Source of the DNA: Candidatus Helarchaeota archaeon
Lineage (GTDB): Archaea; Asgardarchaeota; Lokiarchaeia; Helarchaeales; HEL-GB-A
DNA: 30,732 nt
Direction of reading: 5' to 3'
NCBI GenBank assembly: GCA_013375455.1
Contig: JABXJT010000055.1
Span: 1-30,732, forward strand
Shown: positions 980-28,883 of the stretch, one piece after another
Numbering within the stretch: position 1 is the first letter of the stretch
How the letters are laid out: every line of letters starts with the position of its first letter
Position numbers and translations under genes: made by a program
The notes under the pieces: model-generated
The model's database searches: none
The model's input: the letters and a program-made list of their open reading frames with translations, nothing else
What the model was told of the DNA's origin: nothing

Positions 980-1095
980 GCCGAGATCTTCCAGTCTGGT
1001 AGGAAGTTAGGATTGGTGGCTTGATTCTAACCTAAAGCAGGACTGCTAATCCTGTGGTTTCGGCCGCGAGGGTTCAAATCCCTCTCTCGGCGCCA
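980..1095 (+). tRNA. tRNA-Ser(GCT) with a 31-nt non-canonical intron, CCA encoded
   Basis: The acceptor GCCGAGA pairs perfectly with TCTCGGC, followed by discriminator G and an encoded CCA. The D stem is TTCC/GGAA. The anticodon arm is CAGGA-CTGCTAA-TCCTG (anticodon GCT), the variable arm is GGTTTCGGCC and the T arm is GAGGG-TTCAAAT-CCCTC. Between the D stem and anticodon stem lie 31 extra bases (about 1006-1036) that must be removed. They fold as a BHB: exon TAGG pairs with intron CCTA (4 bp), each followed by a 3-nt AAG bulge, and the inner helix TTAGGATT pairs with GATTCTAA. The AAG direct repeat makes the cut register ambiguous by up to 3 nt without changing the product. Confidence 0.9.
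1006..1036 (+). other. BHB intron in tRNA-Ser, between positions 26 and 27
   Basis: A 31-nt insertion between the D arm and anticodon arm. It has a perfect 4-bp central helix (TAGG/CCTA), two 3-nt AAG bulges and an 8-bp inner helix with G-T wobbles. This is the geometry recognised by the archaeal tRNA splicing endonuclease. Confidence 0.82.
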
Positions 1096-1118: not shown

Positions 1119-1445
1119 GGGTGATAGACCCGATGCTCGACACCTTTCCGATTACCGATTTCTCTATCTGGTCTCAGACCAGTATCCTATGAGCACCAAA
1201 CGTTAGGACTTACGCTGCTCCATCCCTGGCCTCGCTGGGTTTGCCCATTAGAAGATAGTGACGACTTCCCTTCAGAAGGCGCCTAATCTACCGCCGATCC
1301 CATGGGGCCAATCCTCACTGCCGTGATAGAGCTCGCATAACCGTTCCAGAACCTCACATCGGCTTTTACTCCGCCATATAGAGCACTTGCGGTCCGGTAT
1401 ATTACCTTCAACTGCCGCCCTGTCTCAGTCAGTTAGTCTATCAAA
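1119..1445 (-). ncRNA. ffs: Signal recognition particle (7S) RNA
   Basis: About 325 nt, structured, GC-richer than its surroundings and with no ORF. The 5' TGATAGAC pairs with the 3' GTCTATCA, giving the closed 5'/3' helix typical of archaeal SRP RNA. Helix 8, the SRP54 site, is seen as GAGGCCAGGGATGGAGCAGC (plus-strand 1213-1233): a CCA/TGG stem closed by a GGGA (GNRA) tetraloop, followed by the AGCAG internal loop. The 5' (Alu) portion also resembles archaeal 7S RNAs in the TATATGGCGG and AAAAGCCGATG stretch. The RNA scaffolds SRP54 and SRP19 for cotranslational membrane targeting. Exact ends are estimated from the terminal helix. Its promoter would lie near 1464-1474. Confidence 0.83.
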
Positions 1446-3933: not shown

Positions 3934-5652
3934 CTAGTAAAGAATTCCAGAAAATATGGAGAAGATATCGAACAGGATTAAGGAGAGTATGATGTTTGAA
4001 AGGAGTAGGAAGATTGCTAATCCCCTTACACTCCAAATGAAAGTTTTTACCCACGTCCACGGTTCTTTCGGTTTGAGCTGTTCAGTTTTTGATTTCTCAT
4101 CGGAACCCTCCCCAGAAGATTCAGAGGAATTGGAACGAGGGAAATCTCTATTAAATAATGAGGTAAATAATTTATCACCATCAAAGGGGGGAATCGGGAG
4201 AAGGTTAATGAGTCCCACGGCGAGAGAGAACATATATAAATATACGAGTGTCTGATACACGTGAGGCGCAAGGGGACCGAATAAAATGGCCAATTCGCGA
4301 TCGAGGAGATAGTTCCCTATCCATATCCCGAAACGCCCTTCTGTTTGGTTAGTAAGCGGATATAATTTACATAAATCAATACTTACGTTAAAATCGGTCG
4401 AAGCATTAAATATGAAATCGAGTTGAAGAAATTCTGAGCCATTGACGTAATCTTCTAATTTATATCCAGCAGCTCTTGAGATATTTCCAGTCAAGGTGAC
4501 TTCAGAGCTTAAATTTTGGAAGGAGAATATCTCGTAATTCTGCGAAGGATTTGTAATATTCACTATGTATGCCTTGCTAGTATTAAAAACGCTTAGGCTC
4601 GCATTGATATCGAGGTCAATAACGATCCAAGTAAGATTTACGGCGGATATGCTAAAGGCTGAAAAATTAATTAAAAGCGAGAAATTGAGGTAAGTATTTG
4701 AGGAATTGAAAAGTAATCTGGCTTGATCAGAGGTGGAGAGATTCTCTAGCCCTCCATTGACATATGTTCCGTTATTTATTAAAAATTGTCCCCAAGGACG
4801 GTAAGCCGCTGTTCGGTTAAAGCCAGTAATGACCAACCGATTCGAAATGCTCCCATTTTCAGCTTGAACCGTAAAATTGGCGGGGTCAAAGGGTTTAAAT
4901 TGATCCAATACTGTATCCAAATGAGTGCCATCTCTTATTTGCGTTCCATTAACTTGCATGATGATCTCGTCCTGTTGTAGGATGCCGTAGGCTGCGCCAT
5001 CTGTTTCGATCTTATAAAGATAGGCGCCCTCTCCGACGCGATACATGTTTGTAACCAAAATTAAGGCGAAAAGCGCAATGATCAAATTAATGAACGACCC
5101 CGCAATAAAAATTCGCTGACGCGTTAGACGCTTTTTCTTGGCCGCTTGTTTATCATCGAGTTCGACAAAGGCACCAAAGAAAACAATGAACGCAAGGAAT
5201 CCTGAGGATTTCACCGTAACTCCATCGATCCGAGCGGCAATCCCGTGGGCTACTTCATGAGAAAACATTATTATCGCAATGGGAATTATCATATATAATA
5301 AAGGAAGTCCTGTCACGGTTACGCCTGGAATGAATGGCACAATCGCCTGTTCAGGTCGTGGTGCGGTCAAAAGACCATGAAGATTTATGCCTAGCCAAAC
5401 CATCGTGAAGACCATTGCAAAAAATCCAAATCCAATACCGACAGTTAATAAGGCCCTCCAAAATCGAGGAAACCGCTTCGCTACTTTGTTGATGAAGCGA
5501 TTTAACCGAGTCGTTTTTGCGAGAAGGAGGCCTGGTCCAATCTCCCAGCCCCTTTTCTCTAGTTTAAAGAGAGTCCCAATACCCCATAAACAGAGCCAAA
5601 AGGAGAGTAAAAACAGGAAAAACATCCAGACATCGAATTGCGAACGAACCAC
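3934..5652 (-). CDS. Site-2 protease (M50) family intramembrane metalloprotease with PDZ-like domain
   Basis: A 572-residue polytopic membrane protein. Hydrophobic segments lie at about 9-28, 68-92 and 115-132. The zinc motif HEVAH (132-136) lies in the third region, and the second catalytic motif LLPIPPFDGDKLF lies near the C terminus, giving the DG aspartate. Between them is a long, N-x-S/T-rich region with a PDZ-like start (IQ..GAYGILQQDEIIMQVNGT type). Two further hydrophobic segments follow. The family cleaves transmembrane substrates, usually anti-sigma factors or membrane-tethered regulators. The start is GTG at 5652, with GGAG just upstream. It is expressed with ttuA (stop and start codons touch) and probably with cutA (9-base gap). 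The substrate is unknown. Confidence 0.9.
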   Translation of the reverse strand: MVRSQFDVWMFFLFLLSFWLCLWGIGTLFKLEKRGWEIGPGLLLAKTTRLNRFINKVAKRFPRFWRALLTVGIGFGFFAMVFTMVWLGINLHGLLTAPRPEQAIVPFIPGVTVTGLPLLYMIIPIAIIMFSHEVAHGIAARIDGVTVKSSGFLAFIVFFGAFVELDDKQAAKKKRLTRQRIFIAGSFINLIIALFALILVTNMYRVGEGAYLYKIETDGAAYGILQQDEIIMQVNGTQIRDGTHLDTVLDQFKPFDPANFTVQAENGSISNRLVITGFNRTAAYRPWGQFLINNGTYVNGGLENLSTSDQARLLFNSSNTYLNFSLLINFSAFSISAVNLTWIVIDLDINASLSVFNTSKAYIVNITNPSQNYEIFSFQNLSSEVTLTGNISRAAGYKLEDYVNGSEFLQLDFIFNASTDFNVSIDLCKLYPLTNQTEGRFGIWIGNYLLDRELAILFGPLAPHVYQTLVYLYMFSLAVGLINLLPIPPFDGDKLFTSLFNRDFPRSNSSESSGEGSDEKSKTEQLKPKEPWTWVKTFIWSVRGLAIFLLLSNIILSLILFDIFSIFSGILY

Positions 5653-8046: not shown

Positions 8047-8073
8047 GATATGCCATTATAAATTTAGAGATAA

Positions 8074-8172
8074 TGCCCCGGCCGGGATTCGGACCCGGGT
8101 CGTTCCCCTAGAGAAGGGATCTAGTTTAGGGGTGAAAGCCCTAAATGCTTGGCCGGACTACACCACCGGGGC
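8074..8172 (-). tRNA. tRNA-Glu(TTC) with a 23-nt intron in the variable region
   Basis: The acceptor GCCCCGG pairs with CCGGGGC and the discriminator is A; CCA is not encoded. The D arm is GTGTAGTCCGGCCAAGCAT, as in archaeal tRNA-Glu. The anticodon arm is TAGGG-CTTTCAC-CCCTA (anticodon TTC) and the T arm is CCGGG-TCCGAAT-CCCGG. About 28 bases separate the anticodon and T stems where five are expected, so about 23 (8103-8125) must be removed. They form a hairpin (CTAGA/TCTAG), and exon CCCT can pair with intron GGGG as a BHB central helix. Position 55 is C where a U (pseudouridine) is almost universal. Confidence 0.87.
8103..8125 (-). other. Probable BHB intron in tRNA-Glu, between the anticodon arm and T arm
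   Basis: A 23-nt excess over the normal variable loop. Its core CTAGATCCCTTCTCTAG forms a 5-bp hairpin. The 3' strand of the anticodon stem (CCCT) can pair with GGGG at the intron end, with AAA and AAC as bulges. The inner helix needs one extra bulged base, so the fit is looser than for the Ser and Asn introns. The cut register is uncertain by a base or two. Confidence 0.68.
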
Positions 8173-8225
8173 ATGTTAAAATAAAGTGGCGCCGCCGGTA
8201 GGACTCGAACCTACGACCGACAGGT

Positions 8226-8247
8226 ATCTGCTTTTCTTATGGAAAAA
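8226..8247 (-). other. Canonical 37/38 BHB intron in tRNA-Asn
   Basis: A 22-nt intron. The outer helix is the anticodon stem ACAGG/CCTGT. The central helix is CTGT/GCAG (4 bp, one wobble), the bulges are TAT and ATA, and the inner helix is TTTTC/GAAAA. Cutting after the second base of each bulge gives the exact CTGTTAA loop. This is textbook BHB geometry. Confidence 0.88.
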
Positions 8248-8277
8248 TAACAGCCTGTCGCACTACCTAACTGTGCT

Positions 8278-14083: not shown

Positions 14084-15472
14084 ATGCATAAATCCCGATG
14101 GCTTTTATTGCTTTTTCTAATCCCATTCCTCCTATTTGCGATCCCGCAGAACGCTAACGCTCAGGGAGGTTCCTCTGTTTTAAAAATAACGCTAGATAAC
14201 GATATTGGGCTTGCAGAGGAATTAATGTTTGATGATGCGATAAATTATGCACAACAACAAGGTGTGGATCTGATCGTAGTAGAACTTAGTACCCCTGGAG
14301 GAACTGTAGATGCAGTACTCGAAATTATGGGGAAATTTGAAAGATCATCCATTCCAATTTGTATTTGGATTCCAGTTGGGGCCGGCGCATGGTCAGGAGG
14401 AACGTACCTTTTGATGGCATCCCATATTGCAGCAATGGCATCTCCATCTTTTATAGGGAGTTGCCAACCTGTGGGAGATGACGGGCTTCCTATTACCGAC
14501 AGCAAATACATCAATCCATTAATTGCAACCATAGTCCGTTATGCAGAGTTACATAATCGAAATACAACAATAGCAGAACAGTTCATCACCCAAAACTTGA
14601 ATTTGGATGATCAAGATGCTTTAAATTTTAATGTAACAGAATTTCAAGCAAATTCTCTCACATCCCTGTTAAATCAATTGAATAATTATACACTCCTGAA
14701 GAATATTACTGGCCAAGAAACTTATTATGAATTAGTTTCATCTTTCGGAGGGCCGTATCCAATTCCCGAACGGATTAATTTCACATACCTTGATATCAAG
14801 TCCGCAAATATCATCCCATACAATCCCAGTATTTCTTATCATTTCATTCGTTTCATTACAAATCCGACAGTTGTTTCCATCTTTTTAACAGTCGGTTCAT
14901 TTGGTTTGATCATTGGACTTACTACTACAAATACACATTTAGATGAGATAGTAGGCGGGATTGCACTTGTAATTGGTTTAATTGGTATAGGAATAATTGG
15001 TATTGCAGTAGGGGCAATTATTTTGTTCGCTATTGGTCTCGCATTTTTCCTTTTAGAAATTAAGTTTGATGTGGGGTTCAATGGTTCCTTAGCAATTGGT
15101 GGTGGAGTCTGTATTGCGATTGCGAGTTTATTTATCATTCCGTCGAGTGCCTTTTGGGCAAAACCTGAGTTTTTAGCAAGCGCAAAATGGTCTGCCTTTG
15201 GAATTAGTGTTGCTTTCATCGCATTTTTTTCGGTCATAGCGATTAAAGTTCTTGAAACTAAAGGCTTAAAATCAGAATTAGACGTGGACCGTTTATGTGG
15301 AGCGCGAGGTTACGTAAAGAAAGAACTGAAACCTGAAGGGCAAGTCATCGTAAAGGCAGAACAGTGGAGTGCAATTGCTCTTGAGGGTAATTGGCCCATC
15401 GCTGAAGGCGAAGATATAGAAGTTGTAAAAATTGATGGTCTACGGCTCATTGTAAAACGAGTAGAAGAATAA
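14084..15472 (+). CDS. NfeD-type membrane-bound ClpP-class serine protease
   Basis: A 462-residue protein. A signal peptide is at 1-26 (hydrophobic LLLLFLIPFLLFAI, then ANA/QGG). The ClpP-like domain follows: VDLIVVELSTPGGTVDAVLE, then GAGAWSGGTYLLMASHIAAM with the probable nucleophile Ser104, and GSCQPVGDDG then DSKY with a candidate general base Lys141. This is the Ser-Lys dyad pattern of Pyrococcus PH1510 (1510-N). Four to five membrane segments are at about 285-405, and a soluble C-terminal NfeD OB-fold (GARGYVKKELKPEGQVIVKA, then EGEDIEVVKIDGLRLIVKRV) follows. The Pyrococcus relative cleaves a stomatin-like protein; no stomatin gene is visible here. The family role is membrane-quality control. 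Confidence 0.9.
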   Translation: MHKSRWLLLLFLIPFLLFAIPQNANAQGGSSVLKITLDNDIGLAEELMFDDAINYAQQQGVDLIVVELSTPGGTVDAVLEIMGKFERSSIPICIWIPVGAGAWSGGTYLLMASHIAAMASPSFIGSCQPVGDDGLPITDSKYINPLIATIVRYAELHNRNTTIAEQFITQNLNLDDQDALNFNVTEFQANSLTSLLNQLNNYTLLKNITGQETYYELVSSFGGPYPIPERINFTYLDIKSANIIPYNPSISYHFIRFITNPTVVSIFLTVGSFGLIIGLTTTNTHLDEIVGGIALVIGLIGIGIIGIAVGAIILFAIGLAFFLLEIKFDVGFNGSLAIGGGVCIAIASLFIIPSSAFWAKPEFLASAKWSAFGISVAFIAFFSVIAIKVLETKGLKSELDVDRLCGARGYVKKELKPEGQVIVKAEQWSAIALEGNWPIAEGEDIEVVKIDGLRLIVKRVEE

Positions 15473-21819: not shown

Positions 21820-23605
21820 TCAGACTACGATTGGGGGTTCCCACACCTTGAAAATTTCACGGTAGATCCCGCAAATCTCGCCCACTGTGGCACCCTCTTT
21901 GGTTGCTTCCATAACTACGGGGAGCACGTTCTCCTCTTTTTCGCATACCTTCCGCAATTGATTAAGAATTCCTTCCAGCTTCTTATTGTCGCGGCGTGCC
22001 CTCAACTTCTTTATCCGATCTATTTCCTTCAGACCTGCTTCCGGATTCGTTCTGAAGACGTTTTCAAAATCCAGTTCGTCCACCAGATAGCGATTCACTC
22101 CGATTACCTTCTCTTCCCCGATTTCGATTTTATGTTGCCTCTTCTTGAAAGCGTCCCGCATTTCCCGATAGAGCCATCCCGATTCCAAGGCCTTCACTAT
22201 TCCACCCGCACCTGCAATTTTATCCATGTATTTCCAGATCCGATCCTCAAGCTCGTCTGTTAGCCATTCTACATAATATGATCCTGCCATAGGATCTATC
22301 GTATTGCCAACCCGAATCTCATCTTGAATAATCTGTTGCGTTCTTAACGCCAGTAAGACCGCCTCTTCCGAAGGAAGGCAGAGCGCTTCATCATACGAGT
22401 TTGTATGCATCGATTGGCAACCACCTAAGACCGCCTCCAGCGCTTGATACGCTGTGCGCACAATATTCACCAGTGGTTGCTGCTGTGTCAAAGAAGATCC
22501 AGCAGTTTGAATATGAAATCGGAATTGCCAGGATTTTGGGTCCTTCGATTCATACTTGTCCTTCATTAGTTTATACCAAATCCGTCGTGCTGCGCGATAC
22601 TTCGCTATTTCTTCAAAGAAATCTTTGGAAGCGGATAGATGGAAAGCCAACCGATTCACGAAATCGTCGATCTTCCATCCTCGGGCAATGACTTCATCGA
22701 TATGGGCGATGGCATTGCCAAACACGAATGAAATTTCTTGGACAGCGTCTATGCCCCCTTCACGGTAAACCTACGAGCACTAGAGCGTATCTAGTTCTCT
22801 TTATATCCCGTGAAATTGATGGGGTGCCATTTTGGGACGTTTTTTTGCGCCGTACACCACTCGATCATGTCGCATGCCAGACGTAGTAGGTGGGGTGGAG
22901 ATATATTTTTATAAGCTACATAACCTATTTGCTGAGTGCATATGTCGTTTTGCGTTGTTCCCGCAATCTGCTTCAAATCGTACCCCCTTTGCTTAACCAC
23001 GTTGAAATACATTGCGTTTATTGGAGCTGACGAAAATGGCTCCACTACAAGTGCCACAGATATCTTATCAATGGGTAAGTCTTTAGTGAGCGCATCCAAG
23101 CTATCTATGCAGTAAAGAGGCACACCGGCCGTCCCAACTTCTAAATGCAGTAGATGGGTCAAAACCCAAGCTATATCTGCTATGGGGTCGTCCGGATCGA
23201 TGCCATTGAAGGTCAGAGCATCGACAGCGGCAGATAGTCCAGTTTCTCCGTGTTCATACAGGAATTTCCACCGTGCATTGGTCTCCTCGGGCGTTACGTG
23301 CCCTGAGAATAATCTCAAGACATTCCGTGCCCGGAGAACAAACGCATGGTCCACATTCTTCCCCGATACATATTCGGATAGACACCCCGGGTGAAGGGGG
23401 GCTCCCCAGGAAAGCCGATATCTTTGAGATAGTCTTTATCTTTGATATCCAGGGGAGTATATAGCGGTTTCACCGGAATCTCAGAGTAGGTTTCAAATTT
23501 CTCTGGGCGTTCCTTCTTTTTGGCTATGATTTCTTCCCATTCTTTAGCTTTTGCTTCAATTTTTTTATAATCTTCTTCTGGAGACATAATATCATCCTTT
23601 ACCAT
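21820..23605 (-). CDS. B12-dependent acyl-CoA mutase large subunit, interrupted by two putative BHB introns
   Basis: Three reading frames together give one mutase. Exon 1 (23605-23323) ends TRGVYPNMYRGRMWTMRLF then SGHG. Exon 2 (23293-22801) runs TPEETNARWKFLYEHGETGL to WHPINFTGY. Exon 3 (22768-21820) runs YREGGIDAVQEISFVFGNAI to the stop, with RFHIQTAGSSLTQQQP and MHTNSYDEALCLP. Removing 29 and 32 nt gives 1,725 nt, a 574-residue protein, the normal size. Compared with Propionibacterium methylmalonyl-CoA mutase, Tyr89 is Phe (F90 here), no Arg lies at the 207 position, and the His after Gly-Tyr (244) is replaced, so the substrate is probably another acyl-CoA. A start at the ATG 23587 is favoured by AAAGGATGA. 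Without splicing it would be a pseudogene; splicing is inferred. Confidence 0.8.
22769..22800 (-). other. Putative BHB intron 2 in the mutase large-subunit gene (32 nt)
   Basis: It contains an in-frame TAG and shifts the frame. The inner helix is GAGAACTAGA/TCTAGTGCTC (one mismatch, loop TACGC). The exon sequences TTCACGG and CCGTGAA pair as the outer helix. The central helix has three of four pairs (TAT/GTA), with AAA and GTT bulges. Excision joins the GGA TAT (Gly-Tyr) codons to TAC CGT GAA (Tyr-Arg-Glu) at exactly the spacing of the family. Registers within 2 bases either side give Asn, Val, Ile or Lys at the joint. Confidence 0.65.
23294..23322 (-). other. Putative BHB intron 1 in the mutase large-subunit gene (29 nt)
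   Basis: It contains an in-frame TGA. The inner helix GTCTTGAGA pairs with TCTCAGGGC (loop TTAT). Exon CGGGC pairs with exon GCCCG as the outer helix. The central helix ACGG/ACGT has three of four pairs, and the bulges are AAT and AAC. Cutting after the second base of each bulge joins the codons into SGHGTPEETN, the conserved family sequence. Three adjacent registers give the same product. Confidence 0.72.
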
Positions 23606-24172: not shown

Positions 24173-24341
24173 CTCACTTCACTCTTCTACTTCTAAAAGG
24201 CTCCCATTACTCCAATTATAAATAATAAAAAGTATTTATCAATTAATAACAAATAATTCCTAGGAGTATTAATGTAGCGAATTTTTACGTGGGGGTTTTT
24301 TGCGATACGAGAAGAACAGGATTAGAAAGGAGAAGCTCGCG

Positions 24342-27300
24342 ATGGGGGTAGAAATTCTTAAATTGGAACACATTAGGAAAAGTTCGTTGCAGGAAATAAA
24401 TAACTTTCTTCGCCAACAATATGAAATCTATGGATACGAAGCAATTAAAATCGCCCGGTTGAATAAAGGGACTTTATATGAAATATTCGAAGAAAAACTG
24501 CCAGGCGCCTCACTGCAGGAAATTGGGGTGTTCCATTCACGATTAGCAGACATTCTGGGATATGAGGCCAATGACCTTATCCGACAAAATAGGACCACAA
24601 TATCGCGAATGTTCGGGGAAAAACTACAAGATTCTACTCTCAAAGAAATTGGAGATTTCTTTTTAGGTTTACAAGAAATTAATAAGTTTATTGCAAGCGA
24701 CATTTTTCAAATCCATAAAAAGATGATATATGAATTAATTGAAGAAAAAATCGATCGAAAATTGCTCAAAGGAATCATAAACCTCCTTGAAGGAGTAAGG
24801 AAAATTTCATATGATGAGTGGAACCTATTAACGCAGATATATCTAGAAAAATTAACAGATATGGTAAAAGAACAATATAGGAGCTATTCTCTTGAGGACG
24901 TTGGGCATTGTGTCTATTTTTTTTCGTTGCCTTTGCATATGAAAAAGGATAAATTTGTTCTAAAACGGCGAAATTTATCTGAAATTTTTGGAGAAAAACT
25001 TGAAACATCGCCCCTTGAGCAAATTGGAGCATTCCTCAATTATATATCTTTTTCCTTTAAACGAGGAAGAATTGCGAAGAGACTCGTGCGAACCCATAAA
25101 AACGCATTATTTGAGGTATTTGGAGGAAAACTCAAGGGTTCCTCACTTGAAGAAATTGCGGCCTTTTTGTCTGGGATGAGTATTGCCTCCACGGATGTAG
25201 CATTGGAACTTGCTCGAACTCACAGCAACGCATTGTATGAAATGTTTGAAGGAAAATTTCAAGGAGCTTCAATCGAAGAGGTCATCAAGTTTCTCTATGC
25301 GTTTAGAAATGCTTTTCAAGAAGGAGCTACAGCGATTGCTCAAACCCATTATCAATCACTAACACGCAGGTTTGAAAAAATCCTCCAGGATGCTTCCGTA
25401 AGGAAAATAGCTAATTTCTTAGTTACCTTATCGGCATCCTCCAGAGAATTGGTCGAAGAACTCATCGTGAGCCATAAAAGGGTTATTGAAGAGAAGTTGA
25501 GGAATTTAACGCTTTATGATGTTGGTTACTTCCTTTACTGGTTAGCTCGTGCCCCTTTTTTACCCTCAAAAGAATTCGCGCCGACCCAAGAACAGCGCGC
25601 ATCTGAAATTTATGGGGAAAGATATCTCGTATCTCGACAAAAATGGTTTGAGAAGGGAGTCTTTATAAACACCGGCAATAAGCCGGGCGCGACTTATGTT
25701 TCATCTGTCTTTCTTTCTAGTTTCTCAAAGACCTTATTCGATGTGTTCAAAAAGAAGCTTCCAACAGCCTCGCTTGAGGAAATTGAAAGCTTTCTTGATG
25801 GATTACAAAGAGTTTCTGAGGATGTAGCACGGGAATTTACTCAAACCCTCCAAAAGGATTTAATTCTCTGTTTTAAAGAAAAACTCGATGAGATTTCAGT
25901 TAGAAAGACATCTTCCTTGGAATTTCTCAATTATGTAGAAAGGATAGAAAGTATTTCAGAAGATTTAGGTCAAGAACTCATTGAAAAAAATAAAACTATT
26001 TTATATGAGGAATTTGGAGAGAATTTACAACATTATTCGATAGATCAAATCCTTACAATACTGGCTTTAATGTTTAAGAGTTCTGAAAGCATGGCCTTAG
26101 AATTTCTACAATCACATAAAGAAATCATCTCAAGAAGAATTGAATCTAAAATTAGGGATTATTCACTCCATGAAATTATCTCGCATCTCAGATTAATTGG
26201 TCCAATATCTAGGAATTTAATGGGAGAACTCGCAAAAATGTATAAAGACCCTTTGACACATTTATTTCATGAGAAGTTAATTAGATCTTCACTTCACGGC
26301 ATTGGGAGTTTTTTTCGGGATTTATCATCTATCTCAGATGGTCTAGCCAAACAAATCCTTAGATTAAATCAAGCTTCGTTATCTGAAATTTTCAACGAGA
26401 AAATTCATTCTGCGTCCCTTTACGAAATTGCTGCATTCTTTCGTAATTTCACAAAATTCTCTCCCTCTCTTATAGGAGAAATATTTCAACCCCGCCAAAC
26501 TACTATCTCTAAAGTTCTTGAAGATAGGTTACGAAAAGCTTCCTTAAAACAAATTAATTGGTTTCTGAGAAATGCAAGAATTTGGAGAACTCCAGTTGCA
26601 AATTTTATTCACATCCATGAAAATATCATATCGCGCATAGTGAAAGAGAAAGTTGATTTCTCCTTTAAGGATGTCAATGATTTCATCTCACGTATGGGAA
26701 GAGATTATGAATATATAGGAGAAATTATTACACGGACCCACCAAAGGGAATTGACTTCAATGGTAGAAGTCGACTTTCAGACTTCCTCATTAGAGGACAT
26801 CGGTCAATTTCTTAAGTATTCAAAAACCTCCTCAAACTTGACGGAAAAAGTTATCCAAGGACGTAAATTATTAGTAGAAAAGAAAATTCGTTCGTCATCC
26901 CTTAAAGAAATCTGGAAATTCCTTGAAAGATTTACTATTACTCATCGAGCCATTGCAAAAAAATTCATAAGAATCTATAAAGAAACTCTGTTTGAGGTAT
27001 TCGAAGATAAAGTTCAAGCAACTCCCTTAAGAGATACTGGGAAATTTCTTGAACGATTAGGAAGAATTTCCGGATATAATGCGCGAAAATTGACCGCTAT
27101 TCATAAAAATATGATAATAAATATATTCGAGGAAAAACTTCCAAGCTCTTCATTATACGATATTGATGTTTTTCTCAGGAGTTTATCCAAGATTTCTAAT
27201 GATTTTGTAAAAAAACTGGTTCATCGTTTTGAAAAACAAATATTGGAACTTATCGAGAAAAAACTTCAAAACACTATAATAAAAGAGATTTTTCAGTTTT

Positions 27301-28883
27301 TTAGCAGTATTGCAGCTGGCTCTGAAGAACTTGCGAATAAAATTTTCCTTATCCATAAGGATTCACTAGAAAAGAGGCTCCGAACTCATTTTATTTCGAG
27401 ATTTTCTCCACGCATTTCATTATGGGAGTTATCCCCCTTATCACTTGATTTAAGGGAGCTTCCTGACGATATTCATAATGAAATAGCTAGAATTCGTTTG
27501 AGTATAATCAACGAACGGGCTCATGAATTTACATTACAGGACGTAGGAAGTTTCTTTTTTTTAAGGAATTATCCCAGTGCTTTAAAACAAAAATTTCTTC
27601 AACATCATGTACCTCGATTCATCGAACTATTCAAAAAGAACCTTTATAATTCCAGATTATATGACCTTGGTAGTTTTTTCAAGGGATTGGCATCTATCTC
27701 AGAAAATAAAGCAAGAGAACTCATTCAGACATATAAAAAACAATTGTTAGATATTGTAAATGAAAAGTTTGGGGACGCAACACTTGGATCCATTGACACA
27801 TTTATCTCAGGGATAGCTAAAGCATCTGAATCTCTCGCCATAGAGATCATTCACACCCATAGAACTAAGTTAGATGAAAAATTTCGGGATGCCTCACTTT
27901 ATGATATTCTTAATATGATATTCTTAATAACAAGCCCCCCTGAATCAATAGGAAAGGTAATTATTCAATCTCACAAACAAACGCTTATCGACATGGGAAA
28001 CTCACTTCTGATGAGATCTTTCAAAGATATTGTACGCTTCCGCTTCCTCATTAGAATCGCAGAACTCTCTGAAGAATTCGCCCAAGAATTCGCTCAAGCT
28101 CATCAGACCAAACTATCTGAAATTTTACAGAAAAATATCCGAGATGCGCCACTTAGTGAAACAGGCGAGTTCCTCTCAGGATTGACCAAGATTTCTGAAT
28201 CTGTAGCAAACAACATTGTCCAACTTCACCAGACTCTATTGCGTGAAGTCTTCAGTACAAGGCTACAAGAATCGAACCTCCATGAACTAGGGAAATTTCT
28301 GAGCGGAATAGCAGCTGCATCTAAACCAATTGCTCAGGAACTAGTTCAACCCCATAAGAATCAATTAGTTGAAGCATTTACTACAAAATTACTTGATGCG
28401 GATGTTAGTGAAATAGGAATTTTTCTTTCTGGAATAACGAACAGCTCTGAAAGTATCGCACAAGAAATGCTTCAGACTTCTCTAAATGAGTTATATGACA
28501 TGCTAGAAGAGAAATTATGGGACGCAACTCTTATTGGAATCGGTGAGTTCTTCCTAGGAATAGCCACTACTTCTAAAAATATTGCAAAAGAAATTCTTCA
28601 GACCCATAAATCTTTATTGTTTGAATTAATAAACAACAAGTTACAAATTGATCAGATGTTTCGTGCTAGCCTACCTATCGTAAAAATGCTCTCAGGAATC
28701 GCCAGTACTTCTGAGGATCTATTAAATGAAATCATTCTCAAAAGCGCGTTAAGACAATGGCTTGATGGGGCACCTGACAAAGAAATTCAAGGCCTACTCG
28801 CCCAGATATCTAAAATTTCTGAGCCTGCAGCGAAAAAACTTGCTCCAATCTTTGAACAATTGAAATCATCCCATTTCTCTTAA
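24342..28883 (+). CDS. Giant helical-repeat protein, about 34 repeats of ~42 residues, novel
   Basis: About 1,513 residues from the ATG at 24342, which has AAAGGAG nine bases upstream. A TTG at 24300 would add 14 residues but lacks such a site. The entire length is one degenerate repeat, consensus SLxEIGxFLxGLxxIS then xxxAxExxxxHKxxLxEIFE and EKLxxA, near 42 residues. Each is probably two or three helices, so the protein should form an extended alpha-solenoid. Only one obvious insertion interrupts it (after the GERYLVSRQKW region, about residues 425-470, with Gly-Asn-rich sequence). There is no signal peptide, membrane segment or enzymatic motif, and no N- or C-terminal cap domain. It resembles HEAT/ARM-like scaffolds only in kind; I recognise no named family. 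Confidence 0.8.
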   Translation: MGVEILKLEHIRKSSLQEINNFLRQQYEIYGYEAIKIARLNKGTLYEIFEEKLPGASLQEIGVFHSRLADILGYEANDLIRQNRTTISRMFGEKLQDSTLKEIGDFFLGLQEINKFIASDIFQIHKKMIYELIEEKIDRKLLKGIINLLEGVRKISYDEWNLLTQIYLEKLTDMVKEQYRSYSLEDVGHCVYFFSLPLHMKKDKFVLKRRNLSEIFGEKLETSPLEQIGAFLNYISFSFKRGRIAKRLVRTHKNALFEVFGGKLKGSSLEEIAAFLSGMSIASTDVALELARTHSNALYEMFEGKFQGASIEEVIKFLYAFRNAFQEGATAIAQTHYQSLTRRFEKILQDASVRKIANFLVTLSASSRELVEELIVSHKRVIEEKLRNLTLYDVGYFLYWLARAPFLPSKEFAPTQEQRASEIYGERYLVSRQKWFEKGVFINTGNKPGATYVSSVFLSSFSKTLFDVFKKKLPTASLEEIESFLDGLQRVSEDVAREFTQTLQKDLILCFKEKLDEISVRKTSSLEFLNYVERIESISEDLGQELIEKNKTILYEEFGENLQHYSIDQILTILALMFKSSESMALEFLQSHKEIISRRIESKIRDYSLHEIISHLRLIGPISRNLMGELAKMYKDPLTHLFHEKLIRSSLHGIGSFFRDLSSISDGLAKQILRLNQASLSEIFNEKIHSASLYEIAAFFRNFTKFSPSLIGEIFQPRQTTISKVLEDRLRKASLKQINWFLRNARIWRTPVANFIHIHENIISRIVKEKVDFSFKDVNDFISRMGRDYEYIGEIITRTHQRELTSMVEVDFQTSSLEDIGQFLKYSKTSSNLTEKVIQGRKLLVEKKIRSSSLKEIWKFLERFTITHRAIAKKFIRIYKETLFEVFEDKVQATPLRDTGKFLERLGRISGYNARKLTAIHKNMIINIFEEKLPSSSLYDIDVFLRSLSKISNDFVKKLVHRFEKQILELIEKKLQNTIIKEIFQFFSSIAAGSEELANKIFLIHKDSLEKRLRTHFISRFSPRISLWELSPLSLDLRELPDDIHNEIARIRLSIINERAHEFTLQDVGSFFFLRNYPSALKQKFLQHHVPRFIELFKKNLYNSRLYDLGSFFKGLASISENKARELIQTYKKQLLDIVNEKFGDATLGSIDTFISGIAKASESLAIEIIHTHRTKLDEKFRDASLYDILNMIFLITSPPESIGKVIIQSHKQTLIDMGNSLLMRSFKDIVRFRFLIRIAELSEEFAQEFAQAHQTKLSEILQKNIRDAPLSETGEFLSGLTKISESVANNIVQLHQTLLREVFSTRLQESNLHELGKFLSGIAAASKPIAQELVQPHKNQLVEAFTTKLLDADVSEIGIFLSGITNSSESIAQEMLQTSLNELYDMLEEKLWDATLIGIGEFFLGIATTSKNIAKEILQTHKSLLFELINNKLQIDQMFRASLPIVKMLSGIASTSEDLLNEIILKSALRQWLDGAPDKEIQGLLAQISKISEPAAKKLAPIFEQLKSSHFS

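What the first reader, a model, noticed from the sequence alone, without database searches (positions are those of the whole stretch)
21820..23605. Metabolic mRNA apparently carrying two BHB introns
The mutase large subunit is broken twice. The lesions are not random indels. Each is a compact segment (29 and 32 nt) that folds into a hairpin flanked by pairing exon sequences, with bulges at the very places where cutting restores the conserved protein (SGHG/TPEETN and FTGY/xYREGG). Intron lengths match the tRNA introns of the same window. Archaeal protein-coding BHB introns are known mainly from cbf5 of Crenarchaeota; introns in an acyl-CoA mutase gene, two at once, would be a new case and would make expression of the gene depend on the tRNA splicing endonuclease.
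Basis: partly seen in the sequence, partly recalled or inferred. Interest (0 to 1): 0.92.

Follow-up and report, generated by a model that had tools for sequence, protein, structure and literature searches.

The report
Likely introns inside Asgard enzyme genes
A metabolic gene of an uncultured Asgard archaeon is interrupted by three tiny hairpin segments that look like tRNA-type introns, and similar segments turn up in a few genes of its relatives, including the gene for the ligase that joins spliced RNA, which suggests that messenger RNA splicing in archaea is more common than thought.

Summary
In all three, a bulge-helix-bulge (BHB) cut (between nt 2 and 3 of each bulge) gives exactly the conserved protein. 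Unrelated inserts of the same kind sit at the first site in two other Lokiarchaeia. BHB-type inserts also occur in the mutase small subunit (4 genomes, two sites), in RtcB, the RNA-splicing ligase itself (at least 7 of 207 genomes with a match, two sites), and, weakly, in an acyl-CoA dehydrogenase. Two RtcB genes sharing a stop-containing insert are under strong purifying selection (dN/dS 0.05), which fits removal before translation, not decay. An RNA polymerase domain shows no such insert in the rows listed. Passages read name cbf5 and one 5'UTR as known archaeal mRNA cases. Verdict: real; probably EndA/RtcB-dependent mRNA introns, a new variant of a known kind. No RNA data were available: splicing itself is inferred.

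The parts
23323..23605 (-). exon 1 of the acyl-CoA (methylmalonyl-CoA type) mutase large subunit, ends ...RLFSGHG plus bases of the next codon
   Evidence: PF01642; alignment
23294..23322 (-). insert/intron A, 29 nt. Central helix 23328-23325 with 23299-23296 (3 of 4 pairs plus G.A), bulges AA^U (23324-23322) and AA^C (23295-23293), intron helix 8 of 8 positions
   Evidence: P 0.001; z -4.4; cut restores SGHGTPEETN. The minimum-energy fold has a 3-bp central helix with bulges GAA and AAC
23175..23293 (-). exon 2, ends ...DPIA plus two bases of the D codon
Central helix GCAG (23180-23177) with CUGC (23150-23147), bulges AU^A and AU^U
   Evidence: absent from all 12 relatives aligned; P 0.018; z -1.05
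22801..23144 (-). exon 3, ends ...FTGY plus two bases of the N codon
22769..22800 (-). insert/intron C, 32 nt. 5' bulge AA^A; central helix AUAU/GUAG (3 of 4 positions pair); relaxed 3' side; a 7-bp exon helix UUCACGG/CCGUGAA further out
   Evidence: P 0.044; z -3.2; cut restores GYNYREGG
21820..22768 (-). exon 4 to the stop codon
21415..21810 (-). mutase small subunit (B12-binding), uninterrupted here; carries BHB inserts in four other genomes of the class

Best explanation
The three segments are short archaeal introns of the bulge-helix-bulge type. The exon ends flanking each segment and the segment itself fold so that a central helix of four positions lies between two bulges. The tRNA splicing endonuclease (EndA, PF01974) cuts between the second and third nucleotide of each bulge, and RtcB joins the exons, so that the mRNA reads through. 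Shown here: the inserts, their geometry, exact restoration of the conserved protein by the canonical cut, recurrence at shared sites with unrelated insert sequences, purifying selection on relatives' genes that carry such inserts, and EndA and RtcB genes in related genomes. Inferred: cutting and ligation in the cell. The introns are probably gained repeatedly at a few highly conserved codons (mutase, B12 motif, RtcB motifs), as inteins and other insertion elements favour conserved sites; how they are gained is unknown.
For:: three inserts, canonical cut, exact consensus; ten inserts scored, Fisher over the eight non-homologous ones 6e-11; site A carries unrelated 30-nt and 31-nt BHB inserts in G016 (L023) and G056 (L033); in L033 the canonical cut restores the T of TPEETN where tblastn had aligned an S; database fragments end at site A (P0127), three codons on (P0128-P0133) or at B (P0122-P0126), or begin at C (P0153, P0155); one such pair lies on contigs of the same length (P0132/P0167, 6975 nt); mutase small subunit in G017, G019, G046 (SKPGID|GHWRGG, 4/4 central helix, 7-8 of 8 intron-helix positions) and G026 (RGG|IVVSR). 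RtcB inserts in G026 and G062 (GGVGY|DINCG) and in G081, G159-G162 (LPD|AHQGYG, each with TGA or TAA). G160-G161 RtcB dS 0.29, dN/dS 0.05 with a stop-containing insert in both; no comparable insert in the listed rows of RNA polymerase domain PF00562. PF01974 in 226 of 227 genomes, two matches in most; one copy of a Lokiarchaeote (L037) is closest to chains 3p1z_B and 3ajv_B (Aeropyrum pernix enzyme, organism recalled). RtcB in 7 of 7 genomes asked.
Against: No RNA reads. The window's own genome is not held, so its EndA and RtcB were not seen. The minimum-energy fold of A has a 3-bp central helix (bulges GAA and AAC); read literally, the canonical cut on that fold removes 30 nt and loses the frame, so the in-frame cut needs the G.A mismatch counted as the fourth position. 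Insert B lacks a stop and is in frame, so it could simply be translated; its fold is not unusual (z -1.05). Insert C has a relaxed 3' side. L033 also folds no better than shuffles (z -1.0). Insert A alone of nine tested shows direct-repeat likeness to exon 1 (16 of 20, p 3e-4), which could mean a duplication or a chimeric assembly. A free search over positions gives equally good BHB scores by chance (17 at an ordinary indel), so the evidence rests on the cut being fixed by the protein. Covariation in the RtcB LPD|AHQ insert is weak (2 compensated pairs; 47 of 500 shuffles as good on pairing, 186 of 500 on compensated pairs), one of the five (G160) has a poor intron helix, and no null P was computed for these five.
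Confidence: 0.88

Rival explanations
1. The window gene is a decaying pseudogene with chance indels.
For: A 96% identical intact allele exists (P0001); the window gene itself could not be tested for relaxed selection (dS saturated against L001).
Against: Outside the three inserts the frame is open and aligns to relatives without further lesion; three inserts of 29-32 nt, each with BHB geometry at the restoring cut; the same site is used in other genomes; RtcB and small-subunit genes with such inserts are under purifying selection (dN/dS 0.04-0.20).
Confidence: 0.05
2. Assembly or sequencing artefact (strain chimera or misjoin).
For: Likely metagenomic contig; insert A repeats exon-1-like sequence with other codons.
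Against: Three inserts of intron size in one gene, while 19 of 26 other window genes had homologs in the fetched loci and none showed an insertion against its closest homolog (one, 3934-5652, shows 8-9 aa gaps against some of its other hits only); same-site inserts in independent assemblies, the RtcB LPD|AHQ one in five genomes and the small-subunit one in three.
Confidence: 0.04
3. Ribosomal bypassing (hopping) over hairpin segments, as in T4 gene 60 (recalled).
For: Short hairpin inserts between coding blocks.
Against: No direct repeat across the insert boundaries in 8 of 9 inserts tested (matched landing triplets as such were not tested); exon-exon pairing and bulge geometry are not expected for bypassing.
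Confidence: 0.02
4. Insert B alone is a translated lineage-specific insertion, while A and C are introns.
For: In frame, no stop, weak fold.
Against: 4 of 4 central-helix pairs, and the canonical cut gives DPIADLEVG; database fragments P0122-P0126 stop at this site.
Confidence: 0.12

Closest known systems
cbf5 pre-mRNA intron of Crenarchaeota (Yokobori 2009, PMC2738675, passages read; Watanabe 2002 seen only as a citation)
   Different: Here Asgard archaea; several genes (mutase large and small subunits, RtcB, possibly acyl-CoA dehydrogenase); three inserts in one gene; RtcB is itself the presumed ligase.
BHB intron in the 5'UTR of HVO_1309, Haloferax (PMC7714728, passages read)
   Same: mRNA substrate of EndA.
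   Different: Untranslated region, not coding sequence.
Multiple tRNA introns of Asgard archaea (PMC11291895, passages read)
   Same: Same phylum; the same machinery is presumed.
   Different: The passages speak of tRNA genes only.
RtcB inteins of other Asgard genomes
   Same: Occupy nearly the same conserved RtcB site (FDIN|C, three codons from the GGVGY|DIN insert).
   Different: Insertions of several hundred residues with an Intein_splicing domain (PF14890, one gene scanned), removed from protein, not RNA.

Membership tests
archaeal BHB intron | two 3-nt bulges on opposite strands about a 4-bp helix | tested here: met
   central helix 4 of 4 in window B, L023, L012, L017, L004, L231, L232, L243; 3 of 4 in window A, window C, L033, L021. 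In the minimum-energy fold of window A it is 3 bp. Relaxed 3' side in window C and in the RtcB LPD|AHQ inserts, as in known relaxed motifs.
archaeal BHB intron | canonical cut restores the mature product | tested here: met
   10 of 10; RtcB 7 of 7 (for two; for the other five, for which the script had searched the wrong stretch and printed nothing).
archaeal BHB intron | host encodes splicing endonuclease and RtcB ligase | tested here: inconclusive
   Relatives: PF01974 in 226 of 227, RtcB in 207 of 227. The window's own genome is not held.
archaeal BHB intron | segment absent from mature RNA | not testable with these tools
   No RNA data.
archaeal BHB intron | cleaved by EndA in vitro | not testable with these tools
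   Bench assay needed.
group I or group II intron | catalytic core of some hundreds of nt (recalled) | tested here: not met
   29-32 nt; Rfam at gathering thresholds lists only two tRNAs in the window.
intein | in-frame protein insertion with splicing domain | tested here: not met
   A and C shift the frame, B is 10 aa.

The most novel reading that the evidence does not exclude
Asgard archaea have a sporadic system of protein-coding BHB introns that recurrently colonise the same few conserved codons, and in at least seven genomes the gene for the ligase RtcB is itself interrupted, so that functional RtcB mRNA can be made only by splicing that needs RtcB: a self-dependent, possibly self-regulating loop. 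Insertion next to the RtcB intein site and recurrent use of mutase site A with unrelated sequences suggest active, perhaps mobile, gain.
Probability: 0.5. Interest if true: 0.92.

Novelty: new variant of a known kind. Interest (0 to 1): 0.86.

Why it matters
PMC7714728 (2020, passages) says that cbf5 was the only other reported archaeal mRNA with a BHB intron. Recurrent introns in metabolic genes and in RtcB of the archaea held to be closest to eukaryotes would show that protein-enzyme mRNA splicing is a living process there. It would explain some of the broken gene calls in these genomes, give comparative material on how such introns are gained and lost, and raise a testable feedback loop at the ligase gene.

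Tried and rejected
Insertions flagged in L014, L024, L025 and L027 lie, by translation, between the end of the mutase small subunit and the start of MeaB and are not introns. The truncated match in L029 is a run of N, and the stop in G004 is terminal. Tandem duplication as a general origin: a sign of it only in window insert A, none in the other eight tested. A survey of about 2.0 Mb (G019 and G043) plus the earlier loci (2.77 Mb, 2541 ORFs) gave 65 candidate places. One search printed the best 45 by BHB score, and that list missed three inserts already known (L004, L017, L021); one search lists the candidates with a frame break, a stop or more than two supporting hits: those named here, the intergenic ones above, L016 (not examined) and two single low-similarity splits in G019 (not examined). 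So no further clear intron, with limited sensitivity; chance BHB scores up to 17 appear when the cut is left free. RtcB rows in G091 and G111-G115 belong to long frames: the ends of the frames were read for G091, G112, G113 and G115, one (G112) carries PF14890, G111 and G114 are judged by frame length. G151, G059, G118, G027 and G128 have pieces on different contigs. G006 is unexplained. The row list was capped, so genomes with one unlisted row, those with two or three rows that I did not pick (G056 at a contig end, G075, G077, G082, G096, G098, G177) and G116 (one TAA) were not examined: seven is a minimum. Papers searched for mRNA BHB introns; the listings show none in Asgard, but most subscription papers and bioRxiv are not held, and PMC2738675 itself cites earlier predictions of putative introns in other coding genes and 12-bp elements in an archaeal virus.

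Full report
The window is a contig of a Helarchaeota-like Asgard archaeon. The mutase closest in a fetched genome is that of Hel_GB_A (L001, 84% identity); 19 of 26 other window genes have hits in the fetched loci, and the best ones shown lie in loci of that genome, G001. The closest database protein is P0001 (96%). The gene in question is the large subunit of an acyl-CoA mutase (PF01642), followed by its B12-binding small subunit, a MeaB protein and a cobalamin adenosyltransferase.

Observation. The large-subunit gene needs two removals, 29 and 32 nt, to be open. Aligned with 12 relatives it shows a third, in-frame insertion of ten residues that all 12 lack. The three inserts are A 23322-23294, B 23174-23145 and C 22800-22769. 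In each, the archaeal BHB rule (two bulges of three, four positions between, cut after the second bulge base) gives exactly RLFSGHGTPEETN, GIDPDDPIADLEVGT and PINFTGYNYREGG. Among cuts of the right length that restore the peptide (3, 3 and 1 of them), the canonical one scores best; chance values are 0.001, 0.018 and 0.044. The minimum-energy fold of A has two 3-nt bulges about a 3-bp helix, one position short of the canonical four, and taken literally would place the cut one base off frame; the in-frame cut counts a G.A mismatch as the fourth position. The fold of B holds the 5' bulge and the 4-bp helix but an open 3' side; C has a relaxed 3' side.

Recurrence at the same site. In 227 phylum genomes (the class subset first), 57 rows have at least 69% identity; a few of these end at contig ends or in a run of N. 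Two carry an insert, both at site A: G016/L023, 30 nt with two TAA, and G056/L033, 31 nt. Their sequences are unrelated to window insert A, but the geometry and cut are the same. In L033 the canonical cut restores the threonine of TPEETN, where the plain alignment had placed serine. Searches of the protein database with exon pieces return fragments whose ends cluster: after SGHG (P0127), after SGHGTPE (P0128-P0133), after DPRAD or DPRAE (P0122-P0126), and starts at NYREGG or YREGG (P0155, P0153). The DNA of these was not available.

Other genes. Comparison among 101 non-redundant loci (804 kb, 796 ORFs) found 32-nt inserts in the mutase small subunit of L012, L017 and L004 (G046, G019, G017) at SKPGID|GHWRGG, with full central helix, five consecutive exon pairs and 7 or 8 of 8 intron-helix positions. 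A protein search of 83 genomes gave 52 rows of at least 61% identity, four with an insert, the fourth being G026 at RGG|IVVSR. An acyl-CoA dehydrogenase in L021 has a weaker case (P 0.05). Over ten inserts the combined chance is 8e-17, and 6e-11 when homologous copies are counted once. The null is random positions in the fetched loci. With the cut left free, ordinary indels score as high (17), so the fixed cut carries the argument.

RtcB. Looking for the ligase that would join the exons, I found that its own gene is interrupted. Of 227 genomes, 207 have a match. G026 and G062 carry 29 nt at GGVGY|DINCG (P 0.005 and 0.001). G081, G159, G160, G161 and G162 carry 30 nt with a stop at LPD|AHQGYG, where the canonical cut is again the best-scoring cut that restores the protein; the central helix is 3 or 4 of 4, and the 3' side is a larger loop beyond which an exon helix of up to 11 bp forms. 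Seven is a minimum, since the row list was capped. Covariation is slight: 2 compensated pairs and 87.5% of cells paired against at most 44% when slid, but 47 of 500 shuffles pair as well and 186 of 500 have as many compensated pairs. Divergence of the spliced coding sequences gives dN/dS 0.05 for G160-G161 (dS 0.29) and 0.04-0.09 for the six other pairs where dS could be computed (dS 1.05-1.89, two more saturated), 0.06 for G026-G062 and 0.11-0.20 for the small subunits. So these genes are maintained while interrupted. Some other genomes show long insertions at FDIN|C, three codons away (read for G091, G112, G115, and in part for G113); the one scanned has an intein splicing domain. As a yardstick, RNA polymerase domain PF00562 in the same 227 genomes (201 with a match) shows no extra-long row among those listed; one stop and four genomes with two rows were not examined.

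Machinery. PF01974 is found in 226 of 227 genomes, with two matches in most. Of the two copies of one Lokiarchaeote (G002), one matches chains 3p1z_B and 3ajv_B best, the other 1a79_A; that these are the Aeropyrum pernix and Methanocaldococcus jannaschii enzymes is recalled. Two paralogs fit the hetero-oligomeric enzyme that PMC2738675 links to relaxed motifs in pre-mRNA (passages); the assembly here is inferred. The window's genome is not held.

Reading. Decay, assembly error and ribosomal bypassing do not easily explain shared sites with unrelated inserts, exact restoration, and purifying selection. The likely mechanism is cutting by EndA and joining by RtcB; both are inferred. Insert B is the least certain member because it is in frame and weakly folded. 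Insert A alone resembles the preceding exon, an unexplained feature that may bear on its origin.

Known background. PMC7714728 (passages) states that the only other reported mRNA BHB intron is in cbf5, and adds a 5'UTR case. PMC2738675 (passages) describes the cbf5 intron and cites predictions for other coding genes. PMC11291895 (passages) reports abundant tRNA introns in three Asgard genomes. PMC12397907 (passages) mentions bulge-helix-loop and relaxed substrates. PMC13149111 (passages) names no archaeal coding mRNA case in the passages seen. The listings show no title or abstract reporting coding BHB introns in Asgard archaea or in RtcB.

Noticed in passing
window 23294-23347: The 3' half of insert A encodes RLFSGH with different codons from the preceding exon (16 of 20 identical at the insert's own length, p 3e-4); the other eight inserts tested show no such repeat.
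   Followed up: partly
window 8073-8173 and 8198-8277: A tRNA-Glu with about 25 extra nt outside the anticodon loop and a second tRNA with about 23 extra nt in the loop.
   Followed up: partly
window 1020-1095: 3' part of a tRNA-Ser-like gene (by eye) not called by ARAGORN; short matches to this stretch recur in four related genomes.
   Followed up: no
window 1122-1443: Archaeal SRP RNA, 93.3 bits, just below the gathering score of 96.5.
   Followed up: no
L242, L244, L245, L265: RtcB genes of other Asgard genomes carry insertions of several hundred residues at FDIN|C, three codons from an RtcB BHB insert site; the one in L245 has an intein splicing domain.
   Followed up: partly
window 24300-28883: A 1527-aa repetitive protein without a convincing Pfam match and without a hit in the fetched loci.
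   Followed up: no
window 14084-15472: Only residues 20-210 of this 462-aa protein match Hel_GB_A; why the rest does not was not looked into.
   Followed up: no
G006:C209:4484-5596: RtcB with about 70 residues missing between two pieces, unexplained.
   Followed up: no
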